From positions 62,001 through 126,000 of the forward strand of contig JAKSIB010000003.1 in assembly GCA_024399065.1 (NCBI GenBank): a DNA stretch of 64,000 nt, in the 5' to 3' direction. The first letter of the stretch is position 1. Each line of letters starts with the position of its first letter. Positions 1 to 22,707 of this stretch are shown piece by piece. The stretch comes from Fibrobacter sp. (GTDB lineage Bacteria > Fibrobacterota > Fibrobacteria > Fibrobacterales > Fibrobacteraceae). The notes beneath the pieces were generated by a model. It worked only from the letters and a program-made list of their open reading frames with translations, was not told the origin of the DNA and made no database searches. Made by a program: the position numbers and the translations under genes.

Positions 1-2726
1 CTGCAAAGAGTCTTATTGAGACTAGTGGCATCGAAAAAGAGCTGAATGAAGAAAAAATTGCAGATGTCATACAAAAGGCTGCGTTTTTTACAGGTACCGA
101 GCTTAGCGCTGAAGAGACTGAGGCTGCAAAACGTGATTTGCAGTATCAGTACCAGGTCTATAGCGCTCCGGGTCAGAGCATTTTGGATGATTATGATCAA
201 GAACTTTGGTATGACGATGTTAAGGGTGACATTGAACCGAAGTTTTGGAATCGCTATCGTGATTATTTAATTGATTCACAGAATTTTAGTCCGAATGTAG
301 TGAATATCCTTGGTGATGATACCATTGATAAAAAGCTCATGAATTGTTTGGGTGATCCGAATTCATCGAAACCTTTCCTACGTCGCGGTTTGATTATTGG
401 TGATGTTCAGTCTGGTAAGACCTCTACCTATATTGGCTTGATGTGCAAGGCTGCTGATGCCGGATATAAGGTATTCATTCTTTTGACTGGTACCATTGAG
501 TCTTTGCGTAGACAGACTCAGGAACGTGTCGAAGAAGGATTTATTGGCATTGATATGACTGCCGATACTTCTGGCGGCAAGCGTGTAGGTGTTGGTCTTG
601 ATAATAAGCCCCTATTCGCAAAGGCTATGACTTCTCGTATCCAGGATTTTACTGGAAACATCGACAAGATCGCGGATACTCTTGCAGGCAACAACAATGC
701 AATTGTTTTCGTAATTAAGAAAAATACAACGTCTCTTAAGAAACTTAAGAATTGGCTTGTTTCTTTGAATGCGGATCCTGTAACAAAGAAGATTGATCAG
801 CCCATGGTTCTGATTGATGATGAAGCCGATAACGCTTCTATCAATACCAGTGGTGATTCTGAGAACCCGACTGTGATTAATAGGATGATTCGTGAATTGG
901 CAAGCGTATTTACTAAGTCTAATTACGTTGGCTTTACCGCGACGCCTTTTGCCAATGTGTTCATCGATCCGATTACAACGGAAGAAATGACCACTCAGGA
1001 TTTGTTCCCTGAGAACTTCATTGTCACTTTACCTACGCCTTCTAATTATGTTGGTCCCAAAAATATCTTTGACAAAGATGGCAAGCATTATAATCAGCTT
1101 GTTCCTATCACTGATGCGGGGTGCGTAGAAGATGATGGAATGCCCTTCTATTATAAACATAAAAAAGAATGGCGTGGCGATCTCCCTGAGAGTTTGACAG
1201 ATTCCATTTACGCTTTCTTCATTGCAAATACAATTCGAGATTTACGAGGTGATGAGGATAAGCATCGCTCTATGCTGATCAATATCAGTCGTTTTGTTGC
1301 AGTGCAAAAGTATATCAAGGATTGCGTTGATGAAATTTACACAAAGGCTTATAGAGCCGTTAAACACAATTTAACTGGAGCTGCAAGCGACTTAAAGGAT
1401 CCAATTCTTAAACGGATTCATGAGGTTTTTGAAGATCAATTTACGAATGCCGGAGTAACTTGGCGAGATGTGGCTAAGAATATGTTCAAGGCAATCGAAA
1501 AAATAAAGATCTGTATTGTGAACAGCTCCAAAAATTCGGAAAAGCTGGTATATAAAAAAGATGATCCGCAACGAGTTATTGCTATTGGCGGTCTCGCCCT
1601 ATCTCGCGGTCTTACTTTGGAAGGCCTCATTATCAGCTATTTCTATCGCAACACATCTACCTACGATGTTTTGATGCAAATGGGACGCTGGTTTGGTTAT
1701 CGTCGCAATTACGAGGATTTGTTCCGTATTTGGATTGCCGAAAGTTCAGCAGAATGGTATGCCGAAATTTCCGAAGCCACTGAGGCATTGAAGATAGACA
1801 TGGAACTCATGCGTGATCTTAAGTTGAAACCGAAGGACTTTGGTATTCGCGTTCGCAACAATTCCAGTGAGTTGAATATTACATCTTACAACAAGATGCG
1901 TAATACTTCTACGGAATATGAAACCGAAAGCTATTTTGGCGGCTGTGTTGAAACTCCGTATTTGCCCACTAATTATGCTGCAATTAAACAGAATTTTGAT
2001 GCAGTAACTAATTTGGTAAATGACTTACAAAATAAAGGCAAGAACTTTGTCAAGCAGGGTAATGAAAACTACAAGGAACGTTATTTAGTTAAGGATGTTG
2101 ATAAGAGTGATGTTACTCGTTTCTTGAGTAAACTTTCTATTTCGAAGTATAGTGTCAAGTTTGATACTGCTCAACTTGTCGATTTCCTCAATTCCTGTAC
2201 AGACAATTCCATTGATAAGTTTGATATCGCATTCATGGAAGGCGAAAAGGGTGCGGTTTCTATTGGCAACATGTCTCTGAATAAGGTTTATCGCGGTAAT
2301 TCTTCTATTGATCCGGTTAAAGAAAAGCTGAGTATTGGCCAAAAGGGGAAACTTGCTGGTACTAGCGATGGTAAAATTGGTATTGATAGCTTAGATATTG
2401 CGGATCAGGCAAAATCTGAATTCAAATCGCAAAATCCGACAAAAAGCGAACATTATCCGGTTGATACTTGGTTCAAGTATGTGGAAGACCGTAATCCGCT
2501 GCTTTTGATTTACCCTCTTGAGTTGGGAATGGGCAATCAGGAAATAAATCCTACTTACAAGAATCTTAAAGATCACGTTGATGCCGATAAAATCGCTTTC
2601 CTTGGTTTTATGATTGGATTCCCTAGGAATGAAGTTCAAGCATCCATGAGTGTCAATAAGTACAAGGTGAATACCGCTTACAACTATTTTGATCGCGATG
2701 TAAATGAAAATGAGGAGGAAGAATAA
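1..2726 (+). CDS. Z1-domain helicase-like protein of a restriction-type system (5' partial)
   Basis: The reading frame is open from base 3 without any convincing start, so the gene begins upstream of the window; the TTG at 138 is only an internal codon. The protein carries a P-loop (GDVQSGKTS), a DExD-like motif (LIDDEAD) and later SF2-like blocks (GFTATPFANVF, GGLALSRGLTLEGL, QMGRWFGYR), the pattern of the Z1 domain family (PF10593). Z1 proteins are known from restriction-modification and paraMORC gene neighbourhoods and are thought to be ATP-driven DNA translocases or remodellers. The stop overlaps the next start by one base (TAATG) with an AGGAGG ribosome site at 2712-2717, so translation is coupled to the nuclease gene. 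The family call is firm; the exact role is inferred from neighbours. Confidence 0.9.
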   Translation, partial: AKSLIETSGIEKELNEEKIADVIQKAAFFTGTELSAEETEAAKRDLQYQYQVYSAPGQSILDDYDQELWYDDVKGDIEPKFWNRYRDYLIDSQNFSPNVVNILGDDTIDKKLMNCLGDPNSSKPFLRRGLIIGDVQSGKTSTYIGLMCKAADAGYKVFILLTGTIESLRRQTQERVEEGFIGIDMTADTSGGKRVGVGLDNKPLFAKAMTSRIQDFTGNIDKIADTLAGNNNAIVFVIKKNTTSLKKLKNWLVSLNADPVTKKIDQPMVLIDDEADNASINTSGDSENPTVINRMIRELASVFTKSNYVGFTATPFANVFIDPITTEEMTTQDLFPENFIVTLPTPSNYVGPKNIFDKDGKHYNQLVPITDAGCVEDDGMPFYYKHKKEWRGDLPESLTDSIYAFFIANTIRDLRGDEDKHRSMLINISRFVAVQKYIKDCVDEIYTKAYRAVKHNLTGAASDLKDPILKRIHEVFEDQFTNAGVTWRDVAKNMFKAIEKIKICIVNSSKNSEKLVYKKDDPQRVIAIGGLALSRGLTLEGLIISYFYRNTSTYDVLMQMGRWFGYRRNYEDLFRIWIAESSAEWYAEISEATEALKIDMELMRDLKLKPKDFGIRVRNNSSELNITSYNKMRNTSTEYETESYFGGCVETPYLPTNYAAIKQNFDAVTNLVNDLQNKGKNFVKQGNENYKERYLVKDVDKSDVTRFLSKLSISKYSVKFDTAQLVDFLNSCTDNSIDKFDIAFMEGEKGAVSIGNMSLNKVYRGNSSIDPVKEKLSIGQKGKLAGTSDGKIGIDSLDIADQAKSEFKSQNPTKSEHYPVDTWFKYVEDRNPLLLIYPLELGMGNQEINPTYKNLKDHVDADKIAFLGFMIGFPRNEVQASMSVNKYKVNTAYNYFDRDVNENEEEE

Positions 2727-3634
2727 TGGACTTCAAAACTCGTTTTGCACAGTTCTCTAATCCCTGCTATTTTTCTCGAGTTGATGCTAACCATATTCTG
2801 AATTTGCATATCGGCATCAATGAACTTGGTCAAAAGAGTATTGAGTTTCGATATCCTTTTACTGCACGAAAAATCAAGGGAACAAAATCCATTGAAGTTG
2901 GCCAGTATAAAAATAACAACTACAATACTTTGCGTTTTTCCTTGGTAGAAAAAGCTCTTGAAGATCTTTTTTTCAAATTTTGCGATGACATTGTTGAAAA
3001 AACTCGTAATTTGCAGGATGCTGCTCTTGGTTATAATGCAATAGTTGAAAGATTTACCTTATGGAAACGGATGTTCGTTCAGTCTCGAGATGATCTTCTT
3101 TCCGAAGAAGCGATTATGGGCTTGATGGGCGAAATCCTGTATTTGCGAGATGTGCTCTTTACAAAGTATGGCTGCTGTGCAGCTGTCGAGGGCTGGAGTG
3201 GTCAGGATAAAACTAAGAAGGATTTTTCTTACGGTAATGAGTGGTACGAAACAAAGGCTATTCACTACAATAAGACGTCTGTCATAATTTCTTCTTTAGA
3301 ACAACTTGAATCTCAAAATGATGGCGTTTTGGGAGTGGTCCTTCTTGAAAAAATGAGCCAGTCTTATGCTGGGCTTACGCTTAACGATCTTGTATGGAAT
3401 GTTTGCAGTCAAATTAGTTCTGCGGAGCATCAGGATATCTTTTTGCAAAAGGCTGAAAAAAGCGGTTATTCGTACAATGCTGCATATGACGAGTATGTGT
3501 TTGCAAAAAAGAGTATTCGCAATTTTGCAGTGAATGCTACATTCCCAAAGATGACGCCGGCCTCTGTTCCAGCGGGAATTATTTCTGCAAAATACGAGTT
3601 GTCGCTACTGTCTATAGCTGATCATGAAATTTAA
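2726..3634 (+). CDS. PD-(D/E)XK motif nuclease, DUF4420 family
   Basis: This 302-residue protein matches the DUF4420 / PD-(D/E)XK motif family (PF14390). The central region has the expected order: GLMGEILYL with a conserved Glu, then W-SGQ, then Asp166 (KKDFS), then Glu175-Thr-Lys177 (WYETKA), consistent with a metal-dependent endonuclease fold. The start is fixed by the one-base overlap with the Z1 gene. It probably supplies DNA cleavage in the six-gene operon, working with the Z1 ATPase and the downstream GHKL ATPase; that role is inferred from gene order. No signal peptide or membrane segment is visible, so it should be cytoplasmic. Confidence 0.88.
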   Translation: MDFKTRFAQFSNPCYFSRVDANHILNLHIGINELGQKSIEFRYPFTARKIKGTKSIEVGQYKNNNYNTLRFSLVEKALEDLFFKFCDDIVEKTRNLQDAALGYNAIVERFTLWKRMFVQSRDDLLSEEAIMGLMGEILYLRDVLFTKYGCCAAVEGWSGQDKTKKDFSYGNEWYETKAIHYNKTSVIISSLEQLESQNDGVLGVVLLEKMSQSYAGLTLNDLVWNVCSQISSAEHQDIFLQKAEKSGYSYNAAYDEYVFAKKSIRNFAVNATFPKMTPASVPAGIISAKYELSLLSIADHEI

Positions 3635-3649
3635 CGGATAAAGTTGCTT

Positions 3650-5890
3650 ATGACCTACCAAGAATATCGCAAGAACTTTCTTCAAAACCTTCGCAATGAG
3701 TCTGCCATCGACGGAACCGATACAGAAGATGCCTTCATCAACAAGGCGTTAGATATTCTTTGCGAATATGATGAAATTCAAGCTCCCCAGCGAATTCGTA
3801 GTGGCGATAAGATTGTTTCGAAAGGCAGAAAGATTCACTTGGATGGTTATTGCATCGATGAAACGGATCACAGTTTGATCTTATTCATTAGCGATTTTGA
3901 AGATTCCTTTGATGTTTCAAATTTGACCATGAGTAGGGTTGATGAACTTTACTGGCGACTCTATAACTTTCTTGATGAAACTTGTCATGGTAAAATGTCG
4001 GAGTATTTTGATGATTCCGATGAAATGTTACAGGTTGCTTCGTTGGTTCGCGAACGTTTGAAAGTGGATGATATAAATGACGCAACAAACATCCTTAAAA
4101 TAAAGTTTGTTATTCTGACGAATAAGGAACTCGACACAAAACTCCTAAAACAGAATTTACTTGAAACCTCAAAACGGAAGACTAAAAGCCGTAAGCCTGC
4201 AAAGACCACCAAAAAGATTAAGAAAGAAGATTTCGATGGGAAACCTCTTGAAATAAATCTTTGGCATCTTGAACGATTTTATGAACAAGAAGAACAAAAT
4301 CTTTCCGAGGTTGTAACAATCAATTTTGAGGAAGACTACAAGGTAGAGGGTATTCCTTGCATCAAGGGGAATATTGGTGATGACTTGGGCTACCAAGCCT
4401 ATATTGCAATTATTCCAGGTAAGCTTCTTGCAGATATTTATATAGATCACGGCAGTAAAATTTTGGAAGGTAATGTCCGTGCATTCCTTGGAACTTCGGG
4501 CTCTAAGAGCGTGAATAGTGGCATACGCAAGACCATTAACAATGAACCGCAAAACTTCTTTACGTATAATAATGGTATTGCCGCTACGGCTTCTAACATT
4601 GAATTTGTAAAGTCTGAAAACCAGTTATATATTACCGAAATTGAAGACCTGCAGATTATCAATGGAGGCCAGACTACGGCGTCTTTAGCAGAGTCCGTTC
4701 TTAAAAAGACAAATGTGGATCTTGAGGGCATATTTGTGCCTATGAAGCTTACTGTCATTGAAGATCGAGAAACTGAGATTGATGGCATTCGCTATTACGA
4801 TAAAATGGTTCAGGATATAGCGAAGTATGCGAATAGTCAAAATAAGGTAACGGCTGCAGACCTGTTCTCTAATGATCCTTTCCATATTAAAATGGAAAAA
4901 ATGTCCAAGAGCTATCTTGCACCGGCAGTGAAGTACTCTATTCCTACGGCTTGGTACTATGAACGTGCACGAAAAAAATACAAGCAGGAACAGCTCAAAC
5001 TTAAGGGTGATAGTTTAAATCGATTCTTGGCAAAGTTCCCAAAGGAACAGATCATTACCAAAGAGCAGCTTGCAGTTTACTTGACCACTATGGCACAGAA
5101 ACCCCATATTGTGGCTAAGGGTAAAAATTATGTAATCAAGGAATTCAACCAGAACATCCGCGAAGTCTTTGGCAAGAATAAGGATTTGTTCAATGAATTC
5201 TTCTACCATAAGAGCATTGCATCTGCCATTATTTTTAGGTCGGTGGATAACTATCTGGAAGAACACAAGAACTGTGCCAAGAATCCATCGGACTTTTGGT
5301 ACACTGCTGGTGGTTTTAAGATGGATATCGTTCCTTATGCTATTGCGAAAATCCTCAGCTGTATTCCCAGTGAGTTGAGTATCGACTGGGAAAAAATTTG
5401 GAAGATGCAAAAGATCGGCCCTGGCTTTATGAAGGAAATTGCCCGAGCAACAAAATTTGCTAATGACTTCATTAACGATAGCAATGGTGTGATTGTTTCT
5501 GAATACTGCAAGAAGCCTTTGACTTGGGAAAAATTTAAGGAAAAACCTTATACTTTGGGTCAATGGTTCCTAGATGAACTGATTCCTCAGGAAATGGTGG
5601 ATGAACAGCAGAAAACTGCCCAAAGGAATCAAAGAAATACAAATAATCTTCAATCATTGGTAGACTTTATGAAACTCACTCCAAAATATTGGAACGCGAT
5701 TCTTCAGTTGGCTGAAGTCCATAAAGTTGGTACGAATGCAGAAAAAACAAGTTTACTTAAGGCTGTATCTTTTATTCAGAAGGGAATTTTACCCAAAACG
5801 AATACTGTACCGGTGAATGTACAGTCTATGATGAATGACTGTTACTCGGTTAAGGAAAAGTTAGTATCTTTAGGCGTAAAGATACGATGA
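3650..5890 (+). CDS. AIPR family protein
   Basis: The protein (about 746 residues) carries the AIPR core (PF10592, abortive infection phage resistance) between about residues 270 and 345: VRAFLG, then the VN--I--TI pattern, NNGIAATA, then QIINGGQTTASL. AIPR proteins occur in phage-resistance loci but their biochemistry is poorly known. A possible TTG start lies at 3644, but ATG at 3650 is preferred (MTYQEYRKN). The gap to the nuclease gene is about 15 bases, and the 3' end overlaps the methyltransferase start as ATGA. A lysine-rich stretch at about residues 175-200 looks like a linker between the N-terminal domain and the AIPR core. Family confidence is high; function unknown. Confidence 0.88.
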   Translation: MTYQEYRKNFLQNLRNESAIDGTDTEDAFINKALDILCEYDEIQAPQRIRSGDKIVSKGRKIHLDGYCIDETDHSLILFISDFEDSFDVSNLTMSRVDELYWRLYNFLDETCHGKMSEYFDDSDEMLQVASLVRERLKVDDINDATNILKIKFVILTNKELDTKLLKQNLLETSKRKTKSRKPAKTTKKIKKEDFDGKPLEINLWHLERFYEQEEQNLSEVVTINFEEDYKVEGIPCIKGNIGDDLGYQAYIAIIPGKLLADIYIDHGSKILEGNVRAFLGTSGSKSVNSGIRKTINNEPQNFFTYNNGIAATASNIEFVKSENQLYITEIEDLQIINGGQTTASLAESVLKKTNVDLEGIFVPMKLTVIEDRETEIDGIRYYDKMVQDIAKYANSQNKVTAADLFSNDPFHIKMEKMSKSYLAPAVKYSIPTAWYYERARKKYKQEQLKLKGDSLNRFLAKFPKEQIITKEQLAVYLTTMAQKPHIVAKGKNYVIKEFNQNIREVFGKNKDLFNEFFYHKSIASAIIFRSVDNYLEEHKNCAKNPSDFWYTAGGFKMDIVPYAIAKILSCIPSELSIDWEKIWKMQKIGPGFMKEIARATKFANDFINDSNGVIVSEYCKKPLTWEKFKEKPYTLGQWFLDELIPQEMVDEQQKTAQRNQRNTNNLQSLVDFMKLTPKYWNAILQLAEVHKVGTNAEKTSLLKAVSFIQKGILPKTNTVPVNVQSMMNDCYSVKEKLVSLGVKIR

Positions 5891-7140
5891 AATTTCTTGA
5901 TCTTTTCGCTGGCGCAGGTGGTCTTTCCGAAGGCTTTGTTCGGGAAGGTTTTGAGCCTGTTGCTCACGTTGAGTTGTGGGATGCTGCAAGTTATACACTA
6001 AAAACAAGGGCTGCTTTTCATTATTTAGAAGATTTTGGTCAAAGAGAGATTTACGCACAATATTTAAGGGGCGAAATTACTCGAGATGATCTCTATTCCC
6101 ATGTTCCTCAAAATGTCCTCGATTCTGTGATAAATAAGGAAATTGGGGAGGATACAATTGCGTCCATTTTTGAAAAAATAGATGCGTTGAAGGGAGATGA
6201 AGATATTGATTTGGTCGTTGGTGGACCTCCATGCCAGGCTTACTCTTTAGTTGGACGTGCTCGTGATCCGAATGGGATGCGTGACGATCACAGAAATTAC
6301 CTTTTTCAATATTATGCTAAGTTCCTTGAAAGGTATCAGCCTAAGTATTTTGTTTTTGAAAACGTACTTGGATTGTTGAGTGCTAAAGATGAAAACGGTA
6401 CTCTCTATTTTGATCTAATGCAGCGGAAGTTTCAGGAAATTGGTTATCGTGTAGATTACAGAGTGCTTTCCGCTGACAATTATGGTGTTTTGCAAAAACG
6501 CAAACGCATAATTTTGATTGGGAAGAAAACAGATGAAGATTTTCAGTATCCAGAACCGGATCCGGTTGAACATCAGTATACTGTTAAAGCGGTATTTTCA
6601 GGTTTGGCTTCGCTGCATGCTGGAGAAGGTGATGTATACGGGCATCCTTTAACTGTGGGACGTCATAGCCAATGGTTGGAAGAATTTGGAGTATTGTCCA
6701 CATATCCCGTAACCTTTCACTATGCTCGTCCTAATTGCGATAGAGACCTTGAAATATACAGACGCGTTGTTGATTTGTGGAATCATGAAAGAAAAAGGCT
6801 CGATTATAGTCAATTGCCTGAAGAGTTGAAGACTCACGCAAATCAGAAAACATTCTTAGACAGATTTAAGGTTGTCGCTGAAACAGAATCAGCTTCGCAA
6901 ACAATTGTTGCGCATATTTGCAAAGATGGTCATTATTATATCCATCCAGATATAGAACAGAACCGTTCTATTACGCCGAGAGAAGCTGCCCGATTGCAGA
7001 CTTTCCCGGATGATTATTTCTTTGAAAGTGCTTCTGGAAAGCCAAGTCGCACCGATGCTTTTAAACAGATTGGAAATGCAGTGCCTGTCCTGTTGGCTCA
7101 AAAAATTGCTGCAAAATTAAGAGAGGTTTGGGATGAGTGA
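5887..7140 (+). CDS. DNA (cytosine-5) methyltransferase of the six-gene operon
   Basis: A complete m5C methyltransferase of 417 residues. Visible motifs: I FLDLFAGAGGLSEGF at the N-terminus (SAM binding), IV GGPPCQAYS with catalytic Cys116, VI FVFENVLGLL, VIII VLQKRKRIILIG, IX ITPREAARLQTFPDD, and X QIGNAVPVLLA. The target-recognition region lies between motifs VIII and IX. It starts with ATG overlapping the AIPR stop and itself overlaps the next gene by 8 bases, so it belongs to the same transcript. It presumably marks host DNA against the nuclease partners encoded with it. Recognition sequence cannot be read from the protein by eye. Confidence 0.93.
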   Translation: MKFLDLFAGAGGLSEGFVREGFEPVAHVELWDAASYTLKTRAAFHYLEDFGQREIYAQYLRGEITRDDLYSHVPQNVLDSVINKEIGEDTIASIFEKIDALKGDEDIDLVVGGPPCQAYSLVGRARDPNGMRDDHRNYLFQYYAKFLERYQPKYFVFENVLGLLSAKDENGTLYFDLMQRKFQEIGYRVDYRVLSADNYGVLQKRKRIILIGKKTDEDFQYPEPDPVEHQYTVKAVFSGLASLHAGEGDVYGHPLTVGRHSQWLEEFGVLSTYPVTFHYARPNCDRDLEIYRRVVDLWNHERKRLDYSQLPEELKTHANQKTFLDRFKVVAETESASQTIVAHICKDGHYYIHPDIEQNRSITPREAARLQTFPDDYFFESASGKPSRTDAFKQIGNAVPVLLAQKIAAKLREVWDE

Positions 7141-9313
7141 AGAAATGATAACTAGTGGTGCATTCAAAATTCGTCCGGCAGGACGACATATATTTACAAT
7201 TGGACGTGATTTGATTCAGGATCCGTATGCGGCTGTTGTTGAATTGGTGAAAAATGCGTATGATGCAGATGCAACACATGTTGTTTTGTCCTTTAAAAAA
7301 ACGGACAAGCTTGAAATTGTTATAGAAGATAATGGCCATGGAATGACAAGGGATGTTGTTACGTCCAAATGGATGGTCCCATCTACTAATGATAAAGAAC
7401 AAAGAAAACTCAGTCCTAAGGGTCGTATTTTGCAGGGGAGAAAAGGCATAGGTCGTTATGCGTCTGCAATATTGGGAGAGGAACTTTTCTTAGAAACGAT
7501 TTCGCAAGAGTGTCATGAAAAGACGAGTCTTCTTGTTAATTGGGAGGATTTCTTGCATGCAGATTATCTTTCTGATGTGGATATCCTGATTGAAACAGAG
7601 AAAAATGATGGCGATAGTGGAACTGTTCTGACGATTAAAGGTAATAGTATCTCTTTGGAGGAATGGACTTTAGATCAGTTCAAACGGTTGAAAAAAGAAC
7701 TAAAAAAATTGATGACGCCTATAGATGACACGAAGCAGTCTTCTGACGTGGAGTTTGAAATCATTTTAAACATCGCTGGGTTTGGTGAAAACGATGTGGT
7801 CAATGAAAAAATAGAAGCTTTTCCATTATTTGGCTTATTTGATTATAAAATTGCTGGGTGTGTGAATGCGGATGGTTCGGGAATCCTTGTATATGAAATG
7901 CAAAAGTTACGCAATTCTGTGCCGGAGAAAATAAGCTTTAATTTTGGTGGCCCGACGAATTGTGGCGACGTCGTGTTTGATATAAGGGCTTTCGATAGAG
8001 AAAAAGAAGCAATAGAAGACTTAATAAAAAGAGGCTTGAAAGACGGTGGTGGAGCTTATGTAGGCAAACTCGAAGCAAGACGCCTGTTGAATGAAAATAA
8101 TGGCATTGGTGTTTATAGAAATGGATTTAGAATTCGACCTTTGGGTGATCCTGATTTTGATTGGCTTGAGTTGAATAAAAGTAGGGTGCAAAATCCGTCC
8201 CAAAAAATTGGTTCGGATCAGGTAATTGGTTTTGTTAAAATAGAAAGTGAAGAGAAATCTTGTCTTGTTGAAAAAAGTGCACGTGATGGGTTAAAAGAGA
8301 ATGCTGCGTACAAGTCCCTGGTAAGGTTAACTCAGAGCGTTATTAATGAGTTGGAAACTAGGCGATTTATCTATAGAAGTAAGGCTGGATTAAGCAGAAA
8401 AACCTTGAAGGTTGAATCTGAATTTGAGAAACTGTTCTCTTTTTCTTCCTTAAAAAAGAAAATGCAAAATGTTTTGGATACGGGAAATGTTGCAGGGAAT
8501 GTTTCTCAAAACATTATGCAGGTTATTGACGAATCTGAAATAGAAAAGAACAAAATTGCGGATTCTCTGCGTGAAACAATTGCGATTTATCAGGGGCAAG
8601 CGACTTTAGGTAAAATAGTCAATATTGTTTTGCATGAAGGTCGTAAACCTCTTGCATTCTTTAAAAATCAAGTCCCATTATTTAAGAACTGCTATGATCA
8701 ATACCTTGGCGGAGATTATTCGAAATTGCCTAAGGTGTATGAAAAGATGAATTCATTTGCAACGAATACGGATGTTTTAGTGCAGTTGTTTAAAAAAATA
8801 GATCCTTTGGCTGTTGGCAAGCGATTCTCGAAATCATCGATTTCGTTAGAATCGTGTTTAAAATCTGTCTTTTCGGTTTTTTCGTCCGAGCTAAATGATG
8901 TTGAGTGGAATGTCTATTGTAATGTAGAATCTGATGTTCGGTTGCTTTGTTACGAACAGGATGTGTATAGCATATTTACGAATCTGATTGAAAACAGTAT
9001 TTTTTGGATGAATGAAAAGCGATCGGAAATAAAGAAGATCGTTGTTGAGATATTTGTTGAAGATAATCAGGTGGAACATATTGATTACAGAGATTCTGGT
9101 CCAGGAATAGAGGACTCTTTAATTGAATCGGAAGTTATTTTTGAACCTGATTTTTCAACAAAGCCAAAAGGTACTGGTTTAGGCTTGAGTGTTGCCGGTG
9201 AAGCTGCAAGGCGATGTGGTTTTGAGTTAAAAGCTCTTTCATCGATGGAAGGGGCCTATTTTAGATTAGATAGAAAGGATAAGGAGGTGCAGGATGAAAG
9301 TTCTTTTGGTTGA
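7133..9313 (+). CDS. GHKL (MORC/Hsp90-like) ATPase fused to a histidine kinase module
   Basis: The 726-residue protein has two ATPase-like domains. N-terminal residues 18-115 show the GHKL Bergerat fold: Glu37 and Asn41 (ELVKNAYDADA), D66-N-G-H-G, and GRKGIGR around 102-108, as in MORC-like and Hsp90-like proteins of restriction neighbourhoods. The C-terminal half looks like a sensor kinase: an H-box-like segment LHEGRKPLAF with His501, compared with the classical HELRTPL, an N-box with Asn621 (NLIENSIFW), G1 at Asp654 (DSGPGI), and G2 near 680 (GTGLGLSVA). The next gene is a response regulator whose start lies inside this gene. I infer that substrate sensing by the first ATPase is converted to phosphotransfer. 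No membrane segment is seen. Start ATG at 7133 overlaps the methyltransferase and follows GAGAGG. Confidence 0.88.
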   Translation: MSEEMITSGAFKIRPAGRHIFTIGRDLIQDPYAAVVELVKNAYDADATHVVLSFKKTDKLEIVIEDNGHGMTRDVVTSKWMVPSTNDKEQRKLSPKGRILQGRKGIGRYASAILGEELFLETISQECHEKTSLLVNWEDFLHADYLSDVDILIETEKNDGDSGTVLTIKGNSISLEEWTLDQFKRLKKELKKLMTPIDDTKQSSDVEFEIILNIAGFGENDVVNEKIEAFPLFGLFDYKIAGCVNADGSGILVYEMQKLRNSVPEKISFNFGGPTNCGDVVFDIRAFDREKEAIEDLIKRGLKDGGGAYVGKLEARRLLNENNGIGVYRNGFRIRPLGDPDFDWLELNKSRVQNPSQKIGSDQVIGFVKIESEEKSCLVEKSARDGLKENAAYKSLVRLTQSVINELETRRFIYRSKAGLSRKTLKVESEFEKLFSFSSLKKKMQNVLDTGNVAGNVSQNIMQVIDESEIEKNKIADSLRETIAIYQGQATLGKIVNIVLHEGRKPLAFFKNQVPLFKNCYDQYLGGDYSKLPKVYEKMNSFATNTDVLVQLFKKIDPLAVGKRFSKSSISLESCLKSVFSVFSSELNDVEWNVYCNVESDVRLLCYEQDVYSIFTNLIENSIFWMNEKRSEIKKIVVEIFVEDNQVEHIDYRDSGPGIEDSLIESEVIFEPDFSTKPKGTGLGLSVAGEAARRCGFELKALSSMEGAYFRLDRKDKEVQDESSFG

Positions 9314-10355
9314 AGATGATGATGATTGTGTAGCAACGTTCATTGAGGTTGCGCAAGACGTTTGTGAAGATATTAGCATAATTTCTGCTAAAACAGCAAA
9401 GGATGCAATATCTTTGCTGAAGGAAGATTTTGATGTTGCCATTGTTGATCTTAGACTAGATGAGAATTCTGATGGTAATGAATTTATTTCTTCTATGCAG
9501 AAACTGGGTCTGAAAATTCCGACTGTTATACATACTGGAACCCCCGATGATGTTAATCCCAATTTGAATGCGTTAAAAGTATATAAAAGATCTGAAGTGG
9601 ATTATGCGGAAATTTTAAATTACTTACTGCGCATTTTTGAAACAGGTATTACCGAAATTATTGGACTGCGGGGAGAAATAGAAACGCAAATACAATTATT
9701 TTACAAAGATTCTTTTGTAAAAAATTCAGAATTATGGATGAACAGAGCCGCTTTGGATAAAGAACGGGTCAAGAGATCACTTCTGCGAAGCTTGTTGAAT
9801 CGATTTGAGTCTGATATCCATGATCCGAATGAAAAATCTTATGCTGAGGAATTTTACATTCCCTCGAAACAGGAATGCTTGTATACGGGTTCCATTGTAA
9901 AGGCCAAAGATTCTACAAAAACAAACTATGTTGTTCTATCCCCGTCATGCGATCTTGTTGTTAGAAGCTCGGGCCGGATAAATGTTAACACAATAACTTT
10001 ATGTAAGATTGAGAGCGTAAAAGACTATGGCGTTGAATATAAATTTGACGGAGACCAGTCTGTGTTGTCTAATTCGAAAAAAGAAAAAATAGAACCATAT
10101 ATAGAGAATAAAAAGAACTTAAGTCATTGGATGCCCAGAACCATTGATTATGAAGGAGGCGTTATAAACTTTACCATGGTGTCTTCTGCGCCTTATTCAG
10201 ATTTTTTTGAAAAATTTACAATTGCTGGTGTTCGCATATCTCCGGTATTTATGAAAAATATATTATCTAGATTTTCTTCATACTATGCAAGACAGGGACA
10301 GCCTGATTTGAATGTTATGGAAATTATAGATGAAATGAAAGCTCATGAGCAATAA
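9294..10355 (+). CDS. Response regulator with receiver domain and unknown C-terminal domain
   Basis: Residues 1-120 form a receiver domain: acidic patch at residues 7-9 (VEDDDD), phosphoacceptor Asp52 (VAIVDLRLDE), the Thr of VIHTG, and the Lys of VYKRSE. Residues 120-353 form an output region I do not recognise as a DNA-binding, GGDEF or HTH domain; it includes the segment VVLSPSCDLVVR. The gene begins inside the 3' end of the histidine kinase gene behind a strong site (AAGGAGG at 9281-9287), so the two are co-translated partners. The likely job is to pass the kinase signal to the nuclease or helicase of the operon. This role is inference. Confidence 0.85.
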   Translation: MKVLLVEDDDDCVATFIEVAQDVCEDISIISAKTAKDAISLLKEDFDVAIVDLRLDENSDGNEFISSMQKLGLKIPTVIHTGTPDDVNPNLNALKVYKRSEVDYAEILNYLLRIFETGITEIIGLRGEIETQIQLFYKDSFVKNSELWMNRAALDKERVKRSLLRSLLNRFESDIHDPNEKSYAEEFYIPSKQECLYTGSIVKAKDSTKTNYVVLSPSCDLVVRSSGRINVNTITLCKIESVKDYGVEYKFDGDQSVLSNSKKEKIEPYIENKKNLSHWMPRTIDYEGGVINFTMVSSAPYSDFFEKFTIAGVRISPVFMKNILSRFSSYYARQGQPDLNVMEIIDEMKAHEQ

Positions 10356-10406
10356 AAATTCTGAATTTGACAGGATTTGTCTCGGAATAATAAATAGATT
10401 TTTGTT

Positions 10407-11705
10407 ATGGCAAATGTAAAAAAAGACATTCAAGAAACGAATAAGAAGATTTCTCACGTTAGAAAAATTATCAAAAAACGTGTAGAGAACTTGGAGGAAC
10501 GTGATATTCCCCAGACTCCGCTTAGTACAGAAGAAACCTGGCGCTCAGCGGAATTTTCCAAGCCTCAAAAGACGGTTCGTATTGGAACCATGTTTAGTGG
10601 CATTGGCGCTATAGAACATGCGTTTCAAAGATTGGGATTGAAGCATAAGATTGCGTTTGCTGGTGATATTGAACCGAAATGTAAAACAAGTTATTTCGCA
10701 AATTACGATATAGCGGAAAAAGATTGGTTTACAGATATCCGTAATTTTGATGCCAAACCGTACGCTGGTAAAGTTGATTTTATCATCGGTGGTGCACCTT
10801 GCCAAGCTTTCTCAATGGTTGGAAAGAGGCTCGGCTTTGAAGATGCTCGCGGAACACTGTTCTATGAGTTTGCAAGAGTCGTTAAAGAAACGTCTCCTAA
10901 GGTATTTTTGTTTGAGAATGTTAAGGGTTTGTTAAATCATGACAATGGCCGTACATGGCATGTGATGCATGATATTTTTGAGGAGCTCGGTTATACTGTT
11001 TACTTCCGTGTTTTGAATAGTAAGGATTATGGTATTCCTCAACATCGTGAACGCGTATATTGTTTGGGCTTTAAGAAAGAGGTGGATTTTGAATTTCCCG
11101 CACCTATTCCGCTTGAATATACGATGTATGATTTTTTGGAGGATTACATTGATTCCAAGTATTTCTTGAAGGAAAAGGGAATTAAATTCGTCACTAGCCA
11201 TAAGAATAGAGAAAAATGCTATACTCAAATTAATGGTGACGTAGCACTTTGCCAAAAAAGAAATCAACAGTTCAATTGGCATGGTGATTTTGTGTATCAT
11301 CCTGATTCGAAGGATACTCCCAGCAATGAGGCTTTCGATGAATTCATCTTTGATGTTAAGGATGTCGAAGAAAAGTATTATCTGTCAGAAAAAGTGGCCA
11401 AGTATGTTTTAGCGGGTGGTACAAAGAACTTTAAAACATCTACAAAGACCGATTTGGAAGTTGCACGACCGCTTTTGCATTCTATGCATAAGATGCATCG
11501 TGCTGGAGTCGATAACTATGTAACCCATAAGGGGCGTATTCGTAAGCTGACGCCTAGAGAATGCCTGCGCCTAATGGGATTTAAGGATTCTTTTAAAATC
11601 GTTGTCTCCGATACGGCTGCATATCAACAAGCGGGAAATAGCATTGTTGTTGATGTTTTAATCGCGATCCTTAAGCAGATGGACATCACTAAATACGGAG
11701 TATAA
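10407..11705 (+). CDS. DNA (cytosine-5) methyltransferase of the McrB/LlaJI module
   Basis: A 432-residue m5C methyltransferase distinct from the one at 5.9 kb. Motif I is IGTMFSGIGAIEHAF, motif IV GGAPCQAFS with catalytic Cys132, motif VI FLFENVKGLL, motif VIII YGIPQHRERVYCLGF, motif IX LTPRECLRLMGF, and motif X QQAGNSIVVDVL. A basic, probably coiled N-terminal extension of about 55 residues precedes motif I. It is separated from the response regulator by 51 bases and sits 1 base before the HNH gene, so it seems to head a second operon. It should protect host sites from the HNH and LlaJI-type nucleases downstream. I see no strong ribosome site before the ATG. Confidence 0.93.
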   Translation: MANVKKDIQETNKKISHVRKIIKKRVENLEERDIPQTPLSTEETWRSAEFSKPQKTVRIGTMFSGIGAIEHAFQRLGLKHKIAFAGDIEPKCKTSYFANYDIAEKDWFTDIRNFDAKPYAGKVDFIIGGAPCQAFSMVGKRLGFEDARGTLFYEFARVVKETSPKVFLFENVKGLLNHDNGRTWHVMHDIFEELGYTVYFRVLNSKDYGIPQHRERVYCLGFKKEVDFEFPAPIPLEYTMYDFLEDYIDSKYFLKEKGIKFVTSHKNREKCYTQINGDVALCQKRNQQFNWHGDFVYHPDSKDTPSNEAFDEFIFDVKDVEEKYYLSEKVAKYVLAGGTKNFKTSTKTDLEVARPLLHSMHKMHRAGVDNYVTHKGRIRKLTPRECLRLMGFKDSFKIVVSDTAAYQQAGNSIVVDVLIAILKQMDITKYGV

Positions 11706-11706: not shown

Positions 11707-12693
11707 ATGCTTATTGCTGGAAAGTATACTTTTGCAGATGTCTATGACAGTGTCATTACCATTCCAGACTGTTTTGTTTTGCGAAAGAATAAAATTGGTT
11801 CTGGAAATGGTGAAGCGAAATTGTATTTCGGTTCTAAAATTTCGATGAGAAATTTTTTTGGTGAGGAAGGGTTTTCTGCAAGCTGTTTCCTGCTCAAGAG
11901 TGACCTCATTGCCTATATGGATACGATTAAGGCTGAATATCTTAATCCTTCTTATGACTATAGCGGAAAAGATTCTTTTGCTTCATTATGGCAAGAACGT
12001 CGGAAGAAAGTGGATTCACTTCCAGATGTAATAAGTTTTTCGATCCAGGATCAAAATCAAATAGGTGGCTCACGTGGTTACGTAAATTCTGGCGATGAGG
12101 GTTATTATTTGATAAGGGAATTGTCTTTACCCTTAGTTAGTTATATCTCGGCAATGCGTGTGGAAGCTCTTGATGGAACTTCCCGTTTTTATTTGAAGCT
12201 TTTTGTTGATTTTGATGCCATAGAAATGAAGAAAAATGGTCCTTTGGTTCTGAATTACGGTAAAAAGGTTGATTCGGTGCATGAAAAGACGGCTAAGTAT
12301 GACGCTACAGAAAAGGATTCTAACAAGGGAAGAATTGGTCAGGAAAAGTATCGTAATGCTTTGCTTGAAGAATGTCCGTTCTGTCCAATAACGATGATTA
12401 ATGATGAACGTTTGCTAATTGCTAGTCATATCAAACCGTGGGCCGTTTGTGATGAGAAAGAACGTATTGACCCAAAGAATGGATTTATGCTTTCTCCATT
12501 GTACGATCGTCTTTTTGATCAAGGCTTTATCACATTTACAGATGATAAAAAACTTTGGGTGTCGCAATGGTTGACCCCTAAAAACGTTCAACGAATTGGT
12601 TTAAAAAATGATATGTACATTCAGATGCTCCCCATAGATGAAAAGAGAATTGAATATTTAGAGTATCATAGAAAATGTGTCTTTAGAGGATGA
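11707..12693 (+). CDS. HNH endonuclease
   Basis: The C-terminal third matches the HNH_2-type nuclease: GQEKYRNALLEECPFC with cysteines, LLIASHIKPWA with His241, and NGFMLSPLYDRLFD, the classical H-N-H order with an Asp-rich tail. The N-terminal about 200 residues are not recognised and probably give target recognition. The gene is packed between the methyltransferase and the McrB-like gene with spacings of 1 and 3 bases. HNH proteins of this type often accompany m5C methyltransferases as the restriction partner, so two nucleases (this and the gene at 14148) share one methylase. Cytoplasmic. Confidence 0.87.
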   Translation: MLIAGKYTFADVYDSVITIPDCFVLRKNKIGSGNGEAKLYFGSKISMRNFFGEEGFSASCFLLKSDLIAYMDTIKAEYLNPSYDYSGKDSFASLWQERRKKVDSLPDVISFSIQDQNQIGGSRGYVNSGDEGYYLIRELSLPLVSYISAMRVEALDGTSRFYLKLFVDFDAIEMKKNGPLVLNYGKKVDSVHEKTAKYDATEKDSNKGRIGQEKYRNALLEECPFCPITMINDERLLIASHIKPWAVCDEKERIDPKNGFMLSPLYDRLFDQGFITFTDDKKLWVSQWLTPKNVQRIGLKNDMYIQMLPIDEKRIEYLEYHRKCVFRG

Positions 12694-12696: not shown

Positions 12697-14148
12697 ATGA
12701 AGCGACTTTTGCCCCAAAACAAGACTTTTTCGTCACTAGTGCTGGATATTTTTTCTTTTTTGTACGAAAAAGATGAATTTAAATCGTTTGAAACATATTC
12801 AAAAGAATCTATTCCAAAAACAGGTATGCCGGGTGAGACTATAATACAGCTCAATGCTGTAAACAGTGGCCATCGACTTACAGGGCTTTTTCTAAAAAGT
12901 TCTCTTTATTCTGTACAAGAACGAAATAGGCGTAGAGCGCCTCGTTGGTTTGAAAAACCTTTTTCATTTAAAGGCGAACAGGTCTTTTTGAGCAGTCAGT
13001 GGAATTCTGAAGGTGAATATCAATTAACGTTGGATGATCTAAACTTTTTTTTGAAACTGTGCTATTACAACAAGAATGAGGATTCTTATTATAAAGTTCT
13101 AAAGAATGATGAATTATTTGAATTTCACGAGGTGAAAAAAGGTGAAATAAACGAAGACGAAGTTATAAATCAGGAAAAGAGTAGTTGTGTGAATGTTGAT
13201 TTTTCGGTGTCTCAAAAAATTTTCTTCGGTGCTCCCGGAACAGGAAAGTCTCATAAGGTAAACCTGATTACACCGAAAGATAATACGATAACATTCCGCA
13301 CCACATTCCATCCTGACTATGATTATGCTCAGTTTGTTGGATCCTATAAGCCTAAGAAAGATGGCTCTTCTATTACCTATTCCTTCGTTCCACAGGTTTT
13401 TGCAAAGGCTTATGCGGCTGCATGGAAAAATTTGAATCAGCCAGTTTGTCTCGTAATTGAAGAAATCAATCGTGGTAACTGCGCGCAGATTTTTGGCGAC
13501 TTGTTCCAGTTGCTTGATCGTAAGAACGGTGAATCAGAATATCCTATTAATGTGGATGCCGATTTTGGACAATGGCTTGTTGATGAAGCTAAGGTCCCTA
13601 ACCACGAATATGACGAAAATGGATGCGTAAAAATTAAGCTCCCGCCCAACTTCAACATTCTCGCAACCATGAATACTAGCGACCAGTCTTTGTTCCCTAT
13701 GGACAGTGCCTTCAAGCGCCGCTTTGACTGGGAATATGTGCCTATCAAGTACGCCAAGGATGCCGACTGTGGCGATTGTTGGGATGCCGACAAGTTTGTG
13801 ATAAAGCTTGACGATGAAACCTGTTACAGCTGGCTCGACTTCCTAGAAAAAGTGAACGACGATATTTACGATGTCTCCCAGAGTGAAGACAAGCAGATGG
13901 GTGAGTTCTTCGTGAAGCCCAAGGACCATGAGATTGACCAAGACATGTTCCTTTCCAAGGTGATGTTCTACTTGTGGGATTCCGTGTATAAGGACGAGGT
14001 CGATAGAAAAAATGTATTCCATTTCGACTGGACTTTTGCAAATGGCAAAAAGTCTGCGGTCACGTTCCAGAACCTGTTTAAGAACAAGGCCGATACAATC
14101 GAGATTCTTAAGAAGGTCATGGAAAACCTGAAAGTTGAAGCCATCTAG
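12697..14148 (+). CDS. McrB-like AAA+ ATPase (LlaJI R1-type)
   Basis: The protein (483 residues) has an AAA+ domain of the McrB family: Walker A GAPGTGKS at residues 178-185, Walker B-like LVIEEINRG, and the McrB signature TMNTSDQS. In McrBC and LlaJI systems such subunits bind nucleotide, form rings and translocate DNA for the nuclease subunit. The first 160 residues are different from E. coli McrB and probably hold a sequence-recognition domain. The stop overlaps the GTG start of the next gene (TAGTG), as expected for a McrB/McrC-type pair. Confidence in family is high; whether it binds GTP or ATP cannot be told. Confidence 0.92.
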   Translation: MKRLLPQNKTFSSLVLDIFSFLYEKDEFKSFETYSKESIPKTGMPGETIIQLNAVNSGHRLTGLFLKSSLYSVQERNRRRAPRWFEKPFSFKGEQVFLSSQWNSEGEYQLTLDDLNFFLKLCYYNKNEDSYYKVLKNDELFEFHEVKKGEINEDEVINQEKSSCVNVDFSVSQKIFFGAPGTGKSHKVNLITPKDNTITFRTTFHPDYDYAQFVGSYKPKKDGSSITYSFVPQVFAKAYAAAWKNLNQPVCLVIEEINRGNCAQIFGDLFQLLDRKNGESEYPINVDADFGQWLVDEAKVPNHEYDENGCVKIKLPPNFNILATMNTSDQSLFPMDSAFKRRFDWEYVPIKYAKDADCGDCWDADKFVIKLDDETCYSWLDFLEKVNDDIYDVSQSEDKQMGEFFVKPKDHEIDQDMFLSKVMFYLWDSVYKDEVDRKNVFHFDWTFANGKKSAVTFQNLFKNKADTIEILKKVMENLKVEAI

Positions 14149-16190
14149 TGATTTTCCTTTTTGAACAGTTCCCTTACTCCATAGAGTATCTGAAATCTGT
14201 CCTGCCTTTAGATAAGGAGGGCCGTTTTAAGGATTTGCCTAACGGCTTCGTGACTCGCGATGGTAAGCTGGATGGTGTAGGGTATTTGTTCAATGGATCC
14301 CGACTCGGAGGCCGGGATGACAAGGCGGGTGACAGGATTGTATTTGTTCTGCCTAAGGTGTTTTTGGATTCTTCGGCTCAGAATGATGCGGCTAAAGTTT
14401 CTGCTTTTGGGCAGGATGTTCCTCATGATAAAAATTTTGAGCTGAACGGAGATCACAAGGATTTCTTGGCCAACCTTTCTTTGTGGGTATGTTCTTCCAT
14501 TGGAAAATATCGCGAGGCCTTTCCTGGCGACAAGAGCATGGAGGCTCCAACCGCCCGTGGCTTCAGTACAGACAAGGCTTGCCCCACGCTGATCGATGTG
14601 AAGAACGCCATGGAGCGTTTTTACGAGGAGAACAAGAGTCTCTTTGTATTCGTGAGCAAGAATGTGCATAGTGGCAACAACCGCATAGATTGGCGCAGGA
14701 CCATGCGGAAGGCTCCGTTCTTGCGGGGGGTTGGTTCTGCGACGACACCGATTTATATGGAACTGGTGAACAAGAAGAAGGTTTTCGATCTGGATGACCG
14801 TCTGATTGTGCTGTTCTTCTCCGCAATGAATTACATCGAGGAAACCTTTGGTTTCAAGATGCCCAAGTCGGAATTCTACGCCCCCATGCGGGTGAACGAG
14901 TTCCGCCGCCTGCTGGGCCACCGCGGCATCATGGAGCTTCGCCGTATCAAGCACAAGTACTTTGCCGACAAGTTCCTCCGCCTCTACAATATCATGAAGG
15001 CCTTCTTCGAATGGGGCGGCAACTTTAGCGCATGCGGCTTCGGCAGCGAATACCTGCTCACCAGCAAGTACAACAATGTATTCGAACACATGATCGACAA
15101 GCTGGTTGGCGATGACTTGCCATCTCAAATGGCTTATCTCAAGAACCAGAAGGACGGCAAGGAAGTTGACCATCTTTACAGGGATCAGCAATTGGTTTTT
15201 GCTGATGAATCCCAGAAGATTTGGTTCATTGGTGACAGTAAGTATTATAGTGACAAGAACGATATTGTTGGAGAATCCGTTTATAAGCAATTTACTTATG
15301 CGCGCAATATCATTCAGTACAATATTTCCGACTTGCTGAACTATAAGGGCGATAGTAAGGATTATCAGGGCCTCCGATATCGCGATTCCCTAACGGAAGG
15401 CTATTCCGTAACGCCCAACTTCTTTATTCGTGGTGAGGTGCCTGCGGATAAAATTTTCGAGATGCCCGCTGCTGTCGGTGCTATCAGAAAAGATGATGCC
15501 GATTTGTGGAATGAGCGAAACCGTCACTTTGAAAACCGACTCTTCGATCGCGACACCCTTTTGCTCCAGGTTTACAACGTCAACTTCCTCTACGTTCTCA
15601 AGGCCTTTTCCGCCAAGAGCTCCAGCCTCCGCACCGAATTCAAGCACACCGCCCGCGAAAAATTCCGAAAGAACTTCCTGAAGCTGCTGGATGAGAAGTA
15701 TGTTTTCTGGGCTTTGTATCCCCGAAAAGAATCTCTAGATAATTTTGTGACGAATAATTTCCGGAAACTTCAAGGTAAGATGTTCCGTAGGGATGAATCG
15801 GATAACTTTATTATATTGGCTCTTGAAAAGGGCGCTGACAAAAATCCAGAGATTCTGGCAGACGTCAAAAAAGTTGCAGATTTAATGTGGGTCGCGGTGG
15901 AAAAATTTATTGACGGCTCTGATGTGAATTGTCTTGAAGTTCGCGAAGCTGATGATGGCCGATGGAGCGATCGAGATAACGGCTTCTATTTGAAGAAGGA
16001 AATCTTTGAGGAAAGAGTCTTGAACAATACGACTCTGCCAAAGAAACTTGTCGTGAAATCGCAAGATGGCCAAACTGTTAAACACGAAGTTTTGCTCAAT
16101 GGTGGCGTGATTCCTGAATACTCGCACAAAGGTGAATATGACGCTGTAGATTGCTATTTCTTGCCGTGTAAACAACGCCTTGACAAATAA
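14148..16190 (+). CDS. LlaJI / McrC-like restriction endonuclease subunit
   Basis: A 680-residue partner of the McrB-like ATPase. A PD-(D/E)XK-like centre can be read as Asp341 (KEVDHLY) followed by Asp363-Ser-Lys365 (FIGDSKYY), the pattern seen in LlaJI R2-type and DUF2357 nucleases. The N-terminus (FLFEQFPYSIEYLKSVL) resembles the beginning of the second LlaJI protein at 17.9 kb (MYPYSLEAFRSVLGL), which supports a common family. It starts with GTG overlapping the McrB stop. Together with the methyltransferase, HNH and ATPase it forms a LlaJI-like four-gene module. It is followed by the first copy of the cassette-border repeat. Confidence 0.85.
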   Translation: MIFLFEQFPYSIEYLKSVLPLDKEGRFKDLPNGFVTRDGKLDGVGYLFNGSRLGGRDDKAGDRIVFVLPKVFLDSSAQNDAAKVSAFGQDVPHDKNFELNGDHKDFLANLSLWVCSSIGKYREAFPGDKSMEAPTARGFSTDKACPTLIDVKNAMERFYEENKSLFVFVSKNVHSGNNRIDWRRTMRKAPFLRGVGSATTPIYMELVNKKKVFDLDDRLIVLFFSAMNYIEETFGFKMPKSEFYAPMRVNEFRRLLGHRGIMELRRIKHKYFADKFLRLYNIMKAFFEWGGNFSACGFGSEYLLTSKYNNVFEHMIDKLVGDDLPSQMAYLKNQKDGKEVDHLYRDQQLVFADESQKIWFIGDSKYYSDKNDIVGESVYKQFTYARNIIQYNISDLLNYKGDSKDYQGLRYRDSLTEGYSVTPNFFIRGEVPADKIFEMPAAVGAIRKDDADLWNERNRHFENRLFDRDTLLLQVYNVNFLYVLKAFSAKSSSLRTEFKHTAREKFRKNFLKLLDEKYVFWALYPRKESLDNFVTNNFRKLQGKMFRRDESDNFIILALEKGADKNPEILADVKKVADLMWVAVEKFIDGSDVNCLEVREADDGRWSDRDNGFYLKKEIFEERVLNNTTLPKKLVVKSQDGQTVKHEVLLNGGVIPEYSHKGEYDAVDCYFLPCKQRLDK

Positions 16191-16218
16191 TTTCTGTAAA
16201 CGTATATTAATAACGATA

Positions 16219-16270
16219 GTACCCACCACGCGATCTTAGCGATAAGAGCGGACCACGGTGGGTCTTTTTT
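16219..16270 (+). terminator. Cassette-border repeat copy 1 (folded terminator-like element)
   Basis: ACCCACC (16221-16227) pairs with GGTGGGT (16257-16263), followed by a T-run (16265-16270). Inside, CGC (16229-16231) pairs with GCG (16248-16250) and TCTTA pairs with TAAGA around a GNRA-type loop GCGA (16239-16242). It lies 28 bases after the LlaJI-like gene, so it can end that operon. Related copies lie at 20.6, 24.3 and 25.3 kb. Confidence 0.75.
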
Positions 16271-16395
16271 ACGTATAAATTACAATATGACCCTTGCCAA
16301 TATTTAGTCATTAGCTATTATTCAGCCTGACGTACGAAAAAGTATCTCTAAGGCATCTGTGAAAAACAGATGTTTTTCTTTTTCAAGGAGATACT
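16271..16395 (+). promoter_or_regulatory. Leader copy 1: promoter plus attenuator-like hairpin
   Basis: This 125-base leader is nearly identical to 21957-22086, although the downstream genes are unrelated. It contains a promoter-like pair TTGCCA (16294-16299) and TATTAT (16316-16321) with 16 bases between, then a hairpin CATCTGT/ACAGATG (16354-16360, 16366-16372) with a T-rich tail, then AAGGAG (16385-16390) and the ATG. A terminator between promoter and gene suggests attenuation. In the second copy one stem pair changes to U-G, keeping the stem. Confidence 0.65.
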
Positions 16396-17841: not shown

Positions 17842-17850
17842 AAACTAAAA

Positions 17851-22701: not shown

Positions 22702-22707
22702 CCCCTT

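What the first reader, a model, noticed from the sequence alone, without database searches (positions are those of the whole stretch)
1..10355. Six-gene restriction-like operon with a built-in two-component pair
Z1 ATPase, DUF4420 nuclease, AIPR protein, m5C methyltransferase, GHKL/histidine kinase and response regulator are joined by overlapping or near-touching starts. Z1, DUF4420, AIPR and GHKL proteins are known from paraMORC-type restriction neighbourhoods. A matched kinase and regulator inside the operon would let the system be switched by signal rather than being always on.
Basis: partly seen in the sequence, partly recalled or inferred. Interest (0 to 1): 0.85.

Follow-up and report, generated by a model that had tools for sequence, protein, structure and literature searches.

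The report
MZA-type defence operon with swappable kinase-regulator pair
This stretch of bacterial DNA carries an MZA-like anti-phage gene cluster with an extra kinase and partner regulator that, in a related genome, has been exchanged for a very different kinase-regulator pair between nearly identical neighbouring genes, which suggests a plug-in signalling cassette for DNA-defence operons.

Summary
The six genes are real, intact and tightly packed, but they are the middle of an 11-gene run (window -1619 to 16190). A GHKL ATPase (MzaB) lies just upstream of the window; a second m5C methyltransferase, HNH, McrB-like AAA and McrC-like gene follow. MzaB-Z1-DUF4420-AIPR is an MZA-like anti-phage locus (MzaB/C/D/E profiles match, below equivalog cut-offs; no MzaA here). 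The 'GHKL/histidine kinase' is one protein: a MORC/SMCHD1-type ATPase module fused to an HK853-type kinase. Its partner is a receiver-domain protein with a conserved C-terminal domain of unknown fold. This architecture beside m5C methyltransferases is already published (HEF_HK/Response_reg_2), though these proteins fall outside those Pfam models. Most MZA-type loci lack the pair: 2 of 31 sampled outside the host genome have it, both in the host's genus. Kinase and regulator do travel together: adjacent in 61 of 71 loci, distances correlated 0.85 (kinase-methyltransferase 0.19). In a same-genus genome the pair is replaced by a 24%-identical type between flanks about 95-97% identical in DNA, with breaks at gene starts. 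Most likely a soluble MORC-sensing two-component cassette plugged into restriction loci. Phosphotransfer, signal and output are inferred. A new variant of known kinds.

The parts
1..2726 (+). Z1-domain ATPase, MzaC-like; complete gene starts at window -39 (L002:9961-12726, 921 aa). Preceded by MzaB-like GHKL ATPase at window -1619 to -48 (L002:8381-9952, 523 aa)
   Evidence: Pfam Z1 2e-76; PADLOC MzaC 9e-110, MzaB 3e-76; Walker A GDVQSGKT and LIDDEAD read directly
2726..3634 (+). DUF4420 PD-(D/E)XK nuclease, MzaD-like, 302 aa; D-x(n)-ETK motif present
   Evidence: Pfam 9.8e-51, PADLOC MzaD 5.5e-19
3644..5890 (+). AIPR protein, MzaE-like, 748 aa
   Evidence: Pfam AIPR 3.5e-78, PADLOC MzaE 3.6e-52
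5887..7140 (+). m5C DNA methyltransferase 1, 417 aa (PCQ, ENV, QxGN motifs present)
   Evidence: Pfam 4.3e-61; best PADLOC model DrmMII 1.8e-159
7133..9313 (+). MORC-type ATPase fused to histidine kinase, 726 aa: GHKL+S5 (about 1-410), coiled coil and DHp with H501, CA domain (about 570-715)
   Evidence: Pfam HATPase_c_3 + HATPase_c; motifs invariant in 60-71 homologues; AF2 pLDDT 87; Foldseek SMCHD1/MORC2/MORC3 and HK853
9294..10355 (+). Response regulator, 353 aa: REC (1-125, D52) plus conserved C-terminal domain of unknown fold (P217-x-C219-D220, R333-x-G335-x-P337)
   Evidence: AF2 pLDDT 92; REC matches in PDB; C-terminal domain without match
7133..10406 (+). Exchangeable cassette: replaced in genome G092 by a distant kinase-regulator pair between conserved flanks
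   Evidence: DNA comparison
10407..11705 (+). m5C DNA methyltransferase 2, 432 aa
   Evidence: Pfam 2.6e-82
11707..12693 (+). HNH_2 endonuclease, 328 aa
   Evidence: Pfam 6.7e-11
12697..14148 (+). McrB-like AAA protein, 483 aa
   Evidence: Pfam AAA_5 3.4e-13; NCBIfam McrB model 7e-10, below cut-off
14148..16190 (+). McrC-like partner, 680 aa (name from position; no family hit)
   Evidence: no Pfam hit; 58% identical homologue follows the regulator gene in G151, and 62% homologue beside an MZA locus in L120
16350..16376 (+). terminator-like hairpin after the 11-gene run
   Evidence: pattern scan only

Best explanation
An MZA-like anti-phage restriction locus (MzaB, Z1/MzaC, DUF4420/MzaD, AIPR/MzaE and its m5C methyltransferase) has taken in a signalling cassette. 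The cassette encodes a soluble kinase whose input is a MORC-type GHKL-S5 ATPase module and whose output is an HK853-type histidine kinase, plus a receiver-domain regulator. Proposed working: the MORC module senses the state of DNA (foreign, unmethylated or clamped DNA), this sets autophosphorylation of H501, the phosphate passes to D52 of the regulator, and the regulator's C-terminal domain then switches the neighbouring restriction machinery, probably by protein contact since it is not a known DNA-binding domain. Shown here by sequence or model: gene order, intact motifs, MORC+HK architecture, receiver domain, pairing, paired exchange. Inferred: kinase activity, the signal, phosphotransfer, the target and any effect on phage.
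For: MZA profiles match four consecutive genes. The kinase model matches SMCHD1, MORC3 and DNA-bound MORC2 over the N-terminal half and HK853 over the C-terminal half. H501, D52 and both ATP sites are invariant or nearly so. The regulator is adjacent in 61 of 71 loci, usually with a 4-nt overlap. Kinase-regulator distances correlate 0.85 against 0.19 for kinase-methyltransferase. In G092 both genes are exchanged together, from the kinase start codon to the start of the next gene, between flanks at about 95-97% DNA identity. Two regulator families too far apart to match over the receiver still share the C-terminal domain (hhalign 94%, 1.3e-7). The composite recurs in several phyla, with the same order in Paenibacillus.
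Against: Most MZA-type loci lack the pair (29 of 31), and most kinase loci lack Z1 (31 of 37 with full flanks), so a functional link between the two halves is not required by the data. Kinase-methyltransferase co-divergence is weak. No output site, target or regulon was found, and no experiment was possible.
Confidence: 0.5

Rival explanations
1. The methyltransferase-kinase-regulator triad is a defence system of its own: the methyltransferase marks self, the MORC-kinase senses unmarked DNA, and the regulator's C-terminal domain is the phospho-activated effector. MZA and McrBC genes are only neighbours.
For: 31 of 37 full-flank kinase loci lack Z1, and m5C methyltransferase is within 5 kb in 32 of 37. 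No nuclease family recurs beside the triad except Vsr and Vsr-like/repair genes. The regulator's C-terminal domain is conserved across very distant regulators.
Against: The C-terminal domain shows no recognisable catalytic site or fold match, and no activity is known. Kinase and methyltransferase histories are only weakly linked.
Confidence: 0.22
2. Defence-island clustering: MZA, DCM-kinase-regulator and McrBC units are independent cassettes that collect in the same hotspots without acting on each other.
For: The locus is mosaic by gene block (about 70%, 95%, unrelated, 97%, 84-90% DNA identity to G092). The units occur alone elsewhere, and further restriction-like genes follow at 16396-19791.
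Against: Genes overlap by 1-20 nt, and the same order recurs in a distant phylum (Paenibacillus, L114) and in three genomes of the host genus. In the host phylum 3 of 6 genomes with MZA-type loci carry the kinase, against 9 of 168 overall (hypergeometric p 0.002, not corrected for kinship).
Confidence: 0.23
3. The kinase half is not a kinase: both GHKL domains act as DNA-remodelling ATPases and the REC protein is a passive subunit.
For: The N-terminal half is a MORC-like ATPase, a family otherwise found in restriction operons as a structural ATPase (PMC2292703).
Against: H501, N/G boxes and the partner's D52 are invariant or nearly so across 60-71 homologues from many phyla, including archaea, and the DHp-CA matches active kinases by profile.
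Confidence: 0.05

Closest known systems
MZA (mzaABCDE) anti-phage system (Gao 2020, as cited by PMC9523054; PADLOC and NCBIfam MzaB-MzaE)
   Same: MzaB GHKL ATPase, MzaC Z1, MzaD PD-(D/E)XK, MzaE AIPR, same order and strand
   Different: scores well under the NCBIfam equivalog cut-offs; no MzaA (sigma-factor-like) at the locus; adds m5C methyltransferase, MORC-kinase and regulator
Putative type II system of Miller et al. 2022 (PMC9523054)
   Same: Z1 + PD-(D/E)XK family + C5 methyltransferase + AIPR, with a MORC-family protein; about 20% identity to MZA
   Different: their text mentions no two-component pair; only their main text was read
HEF_HK / Response_reg_2 two-component-like pair (Bellieny-Rabelo 2021, PMC8011034; PF19191/PF19192)
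   Same: HATPase_c_3 + DHp + HATPase_c kinase next to a REC-like regulator, near C5 methyltransferase, HNH_2 and Vsr; soluble
   Different: the window proteins match neither Pfam model; only 3 of 60 kinases and 1 of 66 regulators of this set do; a search of that paper's text finds no Z1 domain, AIPR or DUF4420
paraMORC1 family (Iyer 2008, PMC2292703)
   Same: GHKL-S5 ATPase with a conserved C-terminal extension, in operons with MORC, helicase, DCM, Vsr, HNH
   Different: extension not identified as a histidine kinase there; identity with paraMORC1 not tested here

Membership tests
MZA system | MzaB, MzaC, MzaD, MzaE homologues in order | tested here: met
   PADLOC E 3e-76, 9e-110, 5.5e-19, 3.6e-52
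MZA system | equivalog-level scores in NCBIfam | tested here: not met
   308/850, 461/1500, 100/420, 252/1050 bits against cut-offs
MZA system | MzaA (sigma-factor-like) at the locus | tested here: not met
   MzaA model hits lie only on other contigs
Miller 2022 type II | Z1 + PD-(D/E)XK + C5 methyltransferase core plus AIPR | tested here: met
   their sequences were not at hand for direct comparison
HEF_HK / Response_reg_2 pair | match to PF19191 and PF19192 | tested here: not met
   no match at E<=10 in the genome; none for the proteins
HEF_HK / Response_reg_2 pair | HATPase_c_3 + DHp + HATPase_c architecture with adjacent REC-like gene near a C5 methyltransferase | tested here: met
Two-component system | phospho-His in DHp and phospho-Asp in REC conserved | tested here: met
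   H501 invariant in 71 and D52 in 66 sequences
Two-component system | phosphotransfer from kinase to regulator | not testable with these tools
   needs purified proteins
MORC-type ATPase | GHKL + S5 module with intact ATP motifs | tested here: met
   motifs invariant; Foldseek SMCHD1 2.3e-11, MORC3, MORC2
Restriction-modification system | sequence-specific m5C marking and cleavage of unmarked DNA | not testable with these tools
   motifs of both enzymes present; no methylome or assay

The most novel reading that the evidence does not exclude
Methyltransferase + MORC-kinase + regulator is a widespread phosphorelay-based DNA-defence module, in which a MORC clamp senses unmodified DNA and a regulator with a previously undescribed C-terminal domain is the phospho-activated effector, able to work alone or to license MZA and McrBC effectors as an exchangeable cassette.
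Probability: 0.25. Interest if true: 0.8.

Novelty: new variant of a known kind. Interest (0 to 1): 0.5.

Why it matters
What a MORC ATPase senses in prokaryotes is unknown; here it sits in the sensor position of a kinase, so phosphate transfer would give a direct biochemical read-out of MORC activation. The paired exchange between nearly identical flanks gives a natural experiment: two very different kinase-regulator pairs appear to fill the same slot in one operon. If the link to restriction holds, it would show phosphorelay control of an MZA-type system.

Tried and rejected
Pfam for the regulator: no hit at E<=0.01 and only weak unrelated ones at E<=10. PF19191/PF19192 in the whole genome: nothing. 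Sequence search of the PDB with the C-terminal domain profile up to E 10: nothing. Fold searches of the regulator gave only receiver-domain matches of note; a weak PemK-like viral hit (rank 19, E 4e-3, TM 0.23-0.33) was not followed and is not claimed. Idea that kinase and methyltransferase co-evolve as a sensor of one mark: weak (0.19). Idea that the six-gene set is a fixed system: rejected by the Z1-anchored census. Weak kinase hits in L130 and L158 rejected on reading: L130 lacks a kinase half, L158 is a membrane kinase. Phage records hold only partial relatives of the kinase. Promoter scan uninformative: 49 found against 49 in shuffles.

Full report
OBSERVATION. All six genes exist as described, in one direction, with overlaps or gaps of at most 20 nt. 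The window cuts the first gene. In the parent contig (window = C3:62001-126000) the Z1 gene starts 39 nt upstream, and a 523-aa GHKL ATPase matching MzaB ends 8 nt before it. Downstream the same strand continues with a second m5C methyltransferase, HNH_2, McrB-like AAA and a McrC-like gene, no gap above 51 nt, then a terminator-like hairpin at 16350-16376. This is an 11-gene run, not a six-gene operon; a single transcript is not shown. Catalytic motifs of the methyltransferase, Z1 ATPase, PD-(D/E)XK and both GHKL ATPases read intact.

WHAT THE RESTRICTION PART IS. MzaB, Z1, DUF4420 and AIPR match the PADLOC models MzaB, MzaC, MzaD, MzaE and the NCBIfam MZA models below their equivalog cut-offs. 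MzaA model hits in the genome lie only on other contigs. The set with a C5 methyltransferase fits the text description of the type II putative system of Miller et al. (PMC9523054), which they describe as about 20% identical to mzaBCDE, citing Gao 2020 for mzaABCDE. So: MZA-like, not a strict MZA member.

THE KINASE. One 726-aa protein carries HATPase_c_3 and HATPase_c. In 71 homologues both ATP sites and the H-box histidine H501 are conserved. The AlphaFold2 model (pLDDT 87) matches SMCHD1, MORC3 and DNA-bound MORC2 ATPase modules over the first part and HK853-type kinases over the second; a profile search of the PDB gives kinases over 460-710 and MutL over 25-90.

THE REGULATOR. It has no significant Pfam hit, but D52 is invariant in 66 homologues, the profile matches receiver domains in the PDB, and the model (pLDDT 92) matches receiver structures. 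27 of 66 homologues hit Pfam Response_reg. Residues 125-353 form a conserved domain with invariant P217 and C219 and near-invariant D220, R333, G335, P337, with no match in the PDB by sequence. It is not a recognised DNA-binding output domain.

CENSUS BY KINASE. The regulator directly follows the kinase in 61 of 71 loci with room for it, most often with a 4-nt overlap; an m5C methyltransferase lies within 5 kb in 32 of 37 loci with full flanks; a Z1 gene lies within the flanks in 6 of 37. A 133-174-aa family at the +2 or nearby position occurs in 22 of 85 loci; Pfam identifies Vsr in 14 of the 95 neighbours scanned, with HhH-GPD in 4. Both fit repair of m5C deamination. The kinase-regulator pair also sits on conjugative Campylobacter plasmids and on Enterobacter and Hymenobacter plasmids. 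The best-80 sample leans to close relatives and is not a set of independent draws.

CENSUS BY Z1. 46 Z1 loci from four phyla (host genome not counted): 31 have Z1, DUF4420 and AIPR, 30 of these also MzaB, 30 an m5C methyltransferase, but only two the kinase and regulator, both from the host's genus. So the pair is an optional addition. Composite loci are nonetheless spread: three genomes of the host genus, Paenibacillus (same order), Flavobacterium, Hymenobacter, a Methanoregulaceae archaeon and several Streptomycetaceae. In the host phylum, 3 of 6 genomes with MZA-type loci carry the kinase against 9 of 168 overall (hypergeometric p 0.002, inflated by shared ancestry). McrC-like homologues also adjoin the pair in G151 and in L088.

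PAIRED EXCHANGE. Against genome G092 (same genus), methyltransferase 1 is 96% and methyltransferase 2 98% identical in protein. In between, the kinase is 24% identical and the regulator has no significant BLAST match. At DNA level identity is mostly 90-99% up to about 7130, about random until 10405, and 97% from 10406. The left break coincides with the kinase start codon, the right one with the start of methyltransferase 2. A third genome (G081) has the G092-type pair. The kinases fall in distant parts of the tree. Over 59 loci, kinase and regulator distances correlate 0.85, kinase and methyltransferase 0.19. The two regulator families share only the C-terminal domain by hhalign. The simplest reading is that kinase and regulator move as one cassette. 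The genomes are assembled drafts; chimeric assembly is unlikely because two genomes show the same arrangement, but it was not excluded by reads.

PRIOR KNOWLEDGE. Restriction operons with MORC, paraMORC1 (with an unexplained C-terminal extension), DCM, Vsr, HNH and AIPR were described in 2008 (PMC2292703). HATPase_c_3+HEF_HK+HATPase_c kinases with Response_reg_2 neighbours beside C5 methyltransferases, HNH_2 and Vsr were described in 2021, with 91.6% linkage and a proposed role in controlling R-M systems (PMC8011034). The main idea of the finding is therefore published for the kinase-regulator part. New here: these proteins lie outside both Pfam models (3 of 60 and 1 of 66 match), the MORC-fold evidence, the shared C-terminal output domain, the MZA combination with its frequency, and the paired exchange. 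'New' is limited to the library searched (open-licence PMC).

MECHANISM AND CONFIDENCE. Shown by sequence or model: architecture, motifs, linkage, exchange. Inferred: ATP-driven DNA sensing by the MORC module, His-to-Asp transfer, and control of restriction by the regulator. I give 0.5 to the signalling-cassette explanation, with a stand-alone triad (0.22) and island clustering (0.23) as the main rivals.

Noticed in passing
window 16396-19791: After the terminator-like hairpin: a Schlafen AlbA_2/HATPase_c_4 gene and a LlaJI-type restriction endonuclease gene; a similar AlbA_2/HATPase_c_4 gene lies upstream on the other strand (L002:5960-7657).
   Followed up: partly
window 22087-25342: Further genes that look like mobile or defence-linked hypothetical families; not scanned against any library.
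   Followed up: no
window 16216-16270, 20609-20663, 24266-24321: Short sequences of about 55 bases at several intergenic places match the same places in G092, suggesting a dispersed intergenic repeat.
   Followed up: no
L130:15718-17385: Beside an MZA-type locus, a GHKL protein without a kinase half; its C-terminal sequence looks like a Shedu-type nuclease (by eye only).
   Followed up: no
L112:12901-13875: A gene that looks like a metallo-beta-lactamase-fold protein (by eye) lies between the kinase-regulator pair and the MZA genes in Flavobacterium.
   Followed up: no
L022:11989-16442: Kinase-regulator pair with a convergent m5C methyltransferase on conjugative Campylobacter plasmids, found in 35 Campylobacter plasmid records.
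   Followed up: partly
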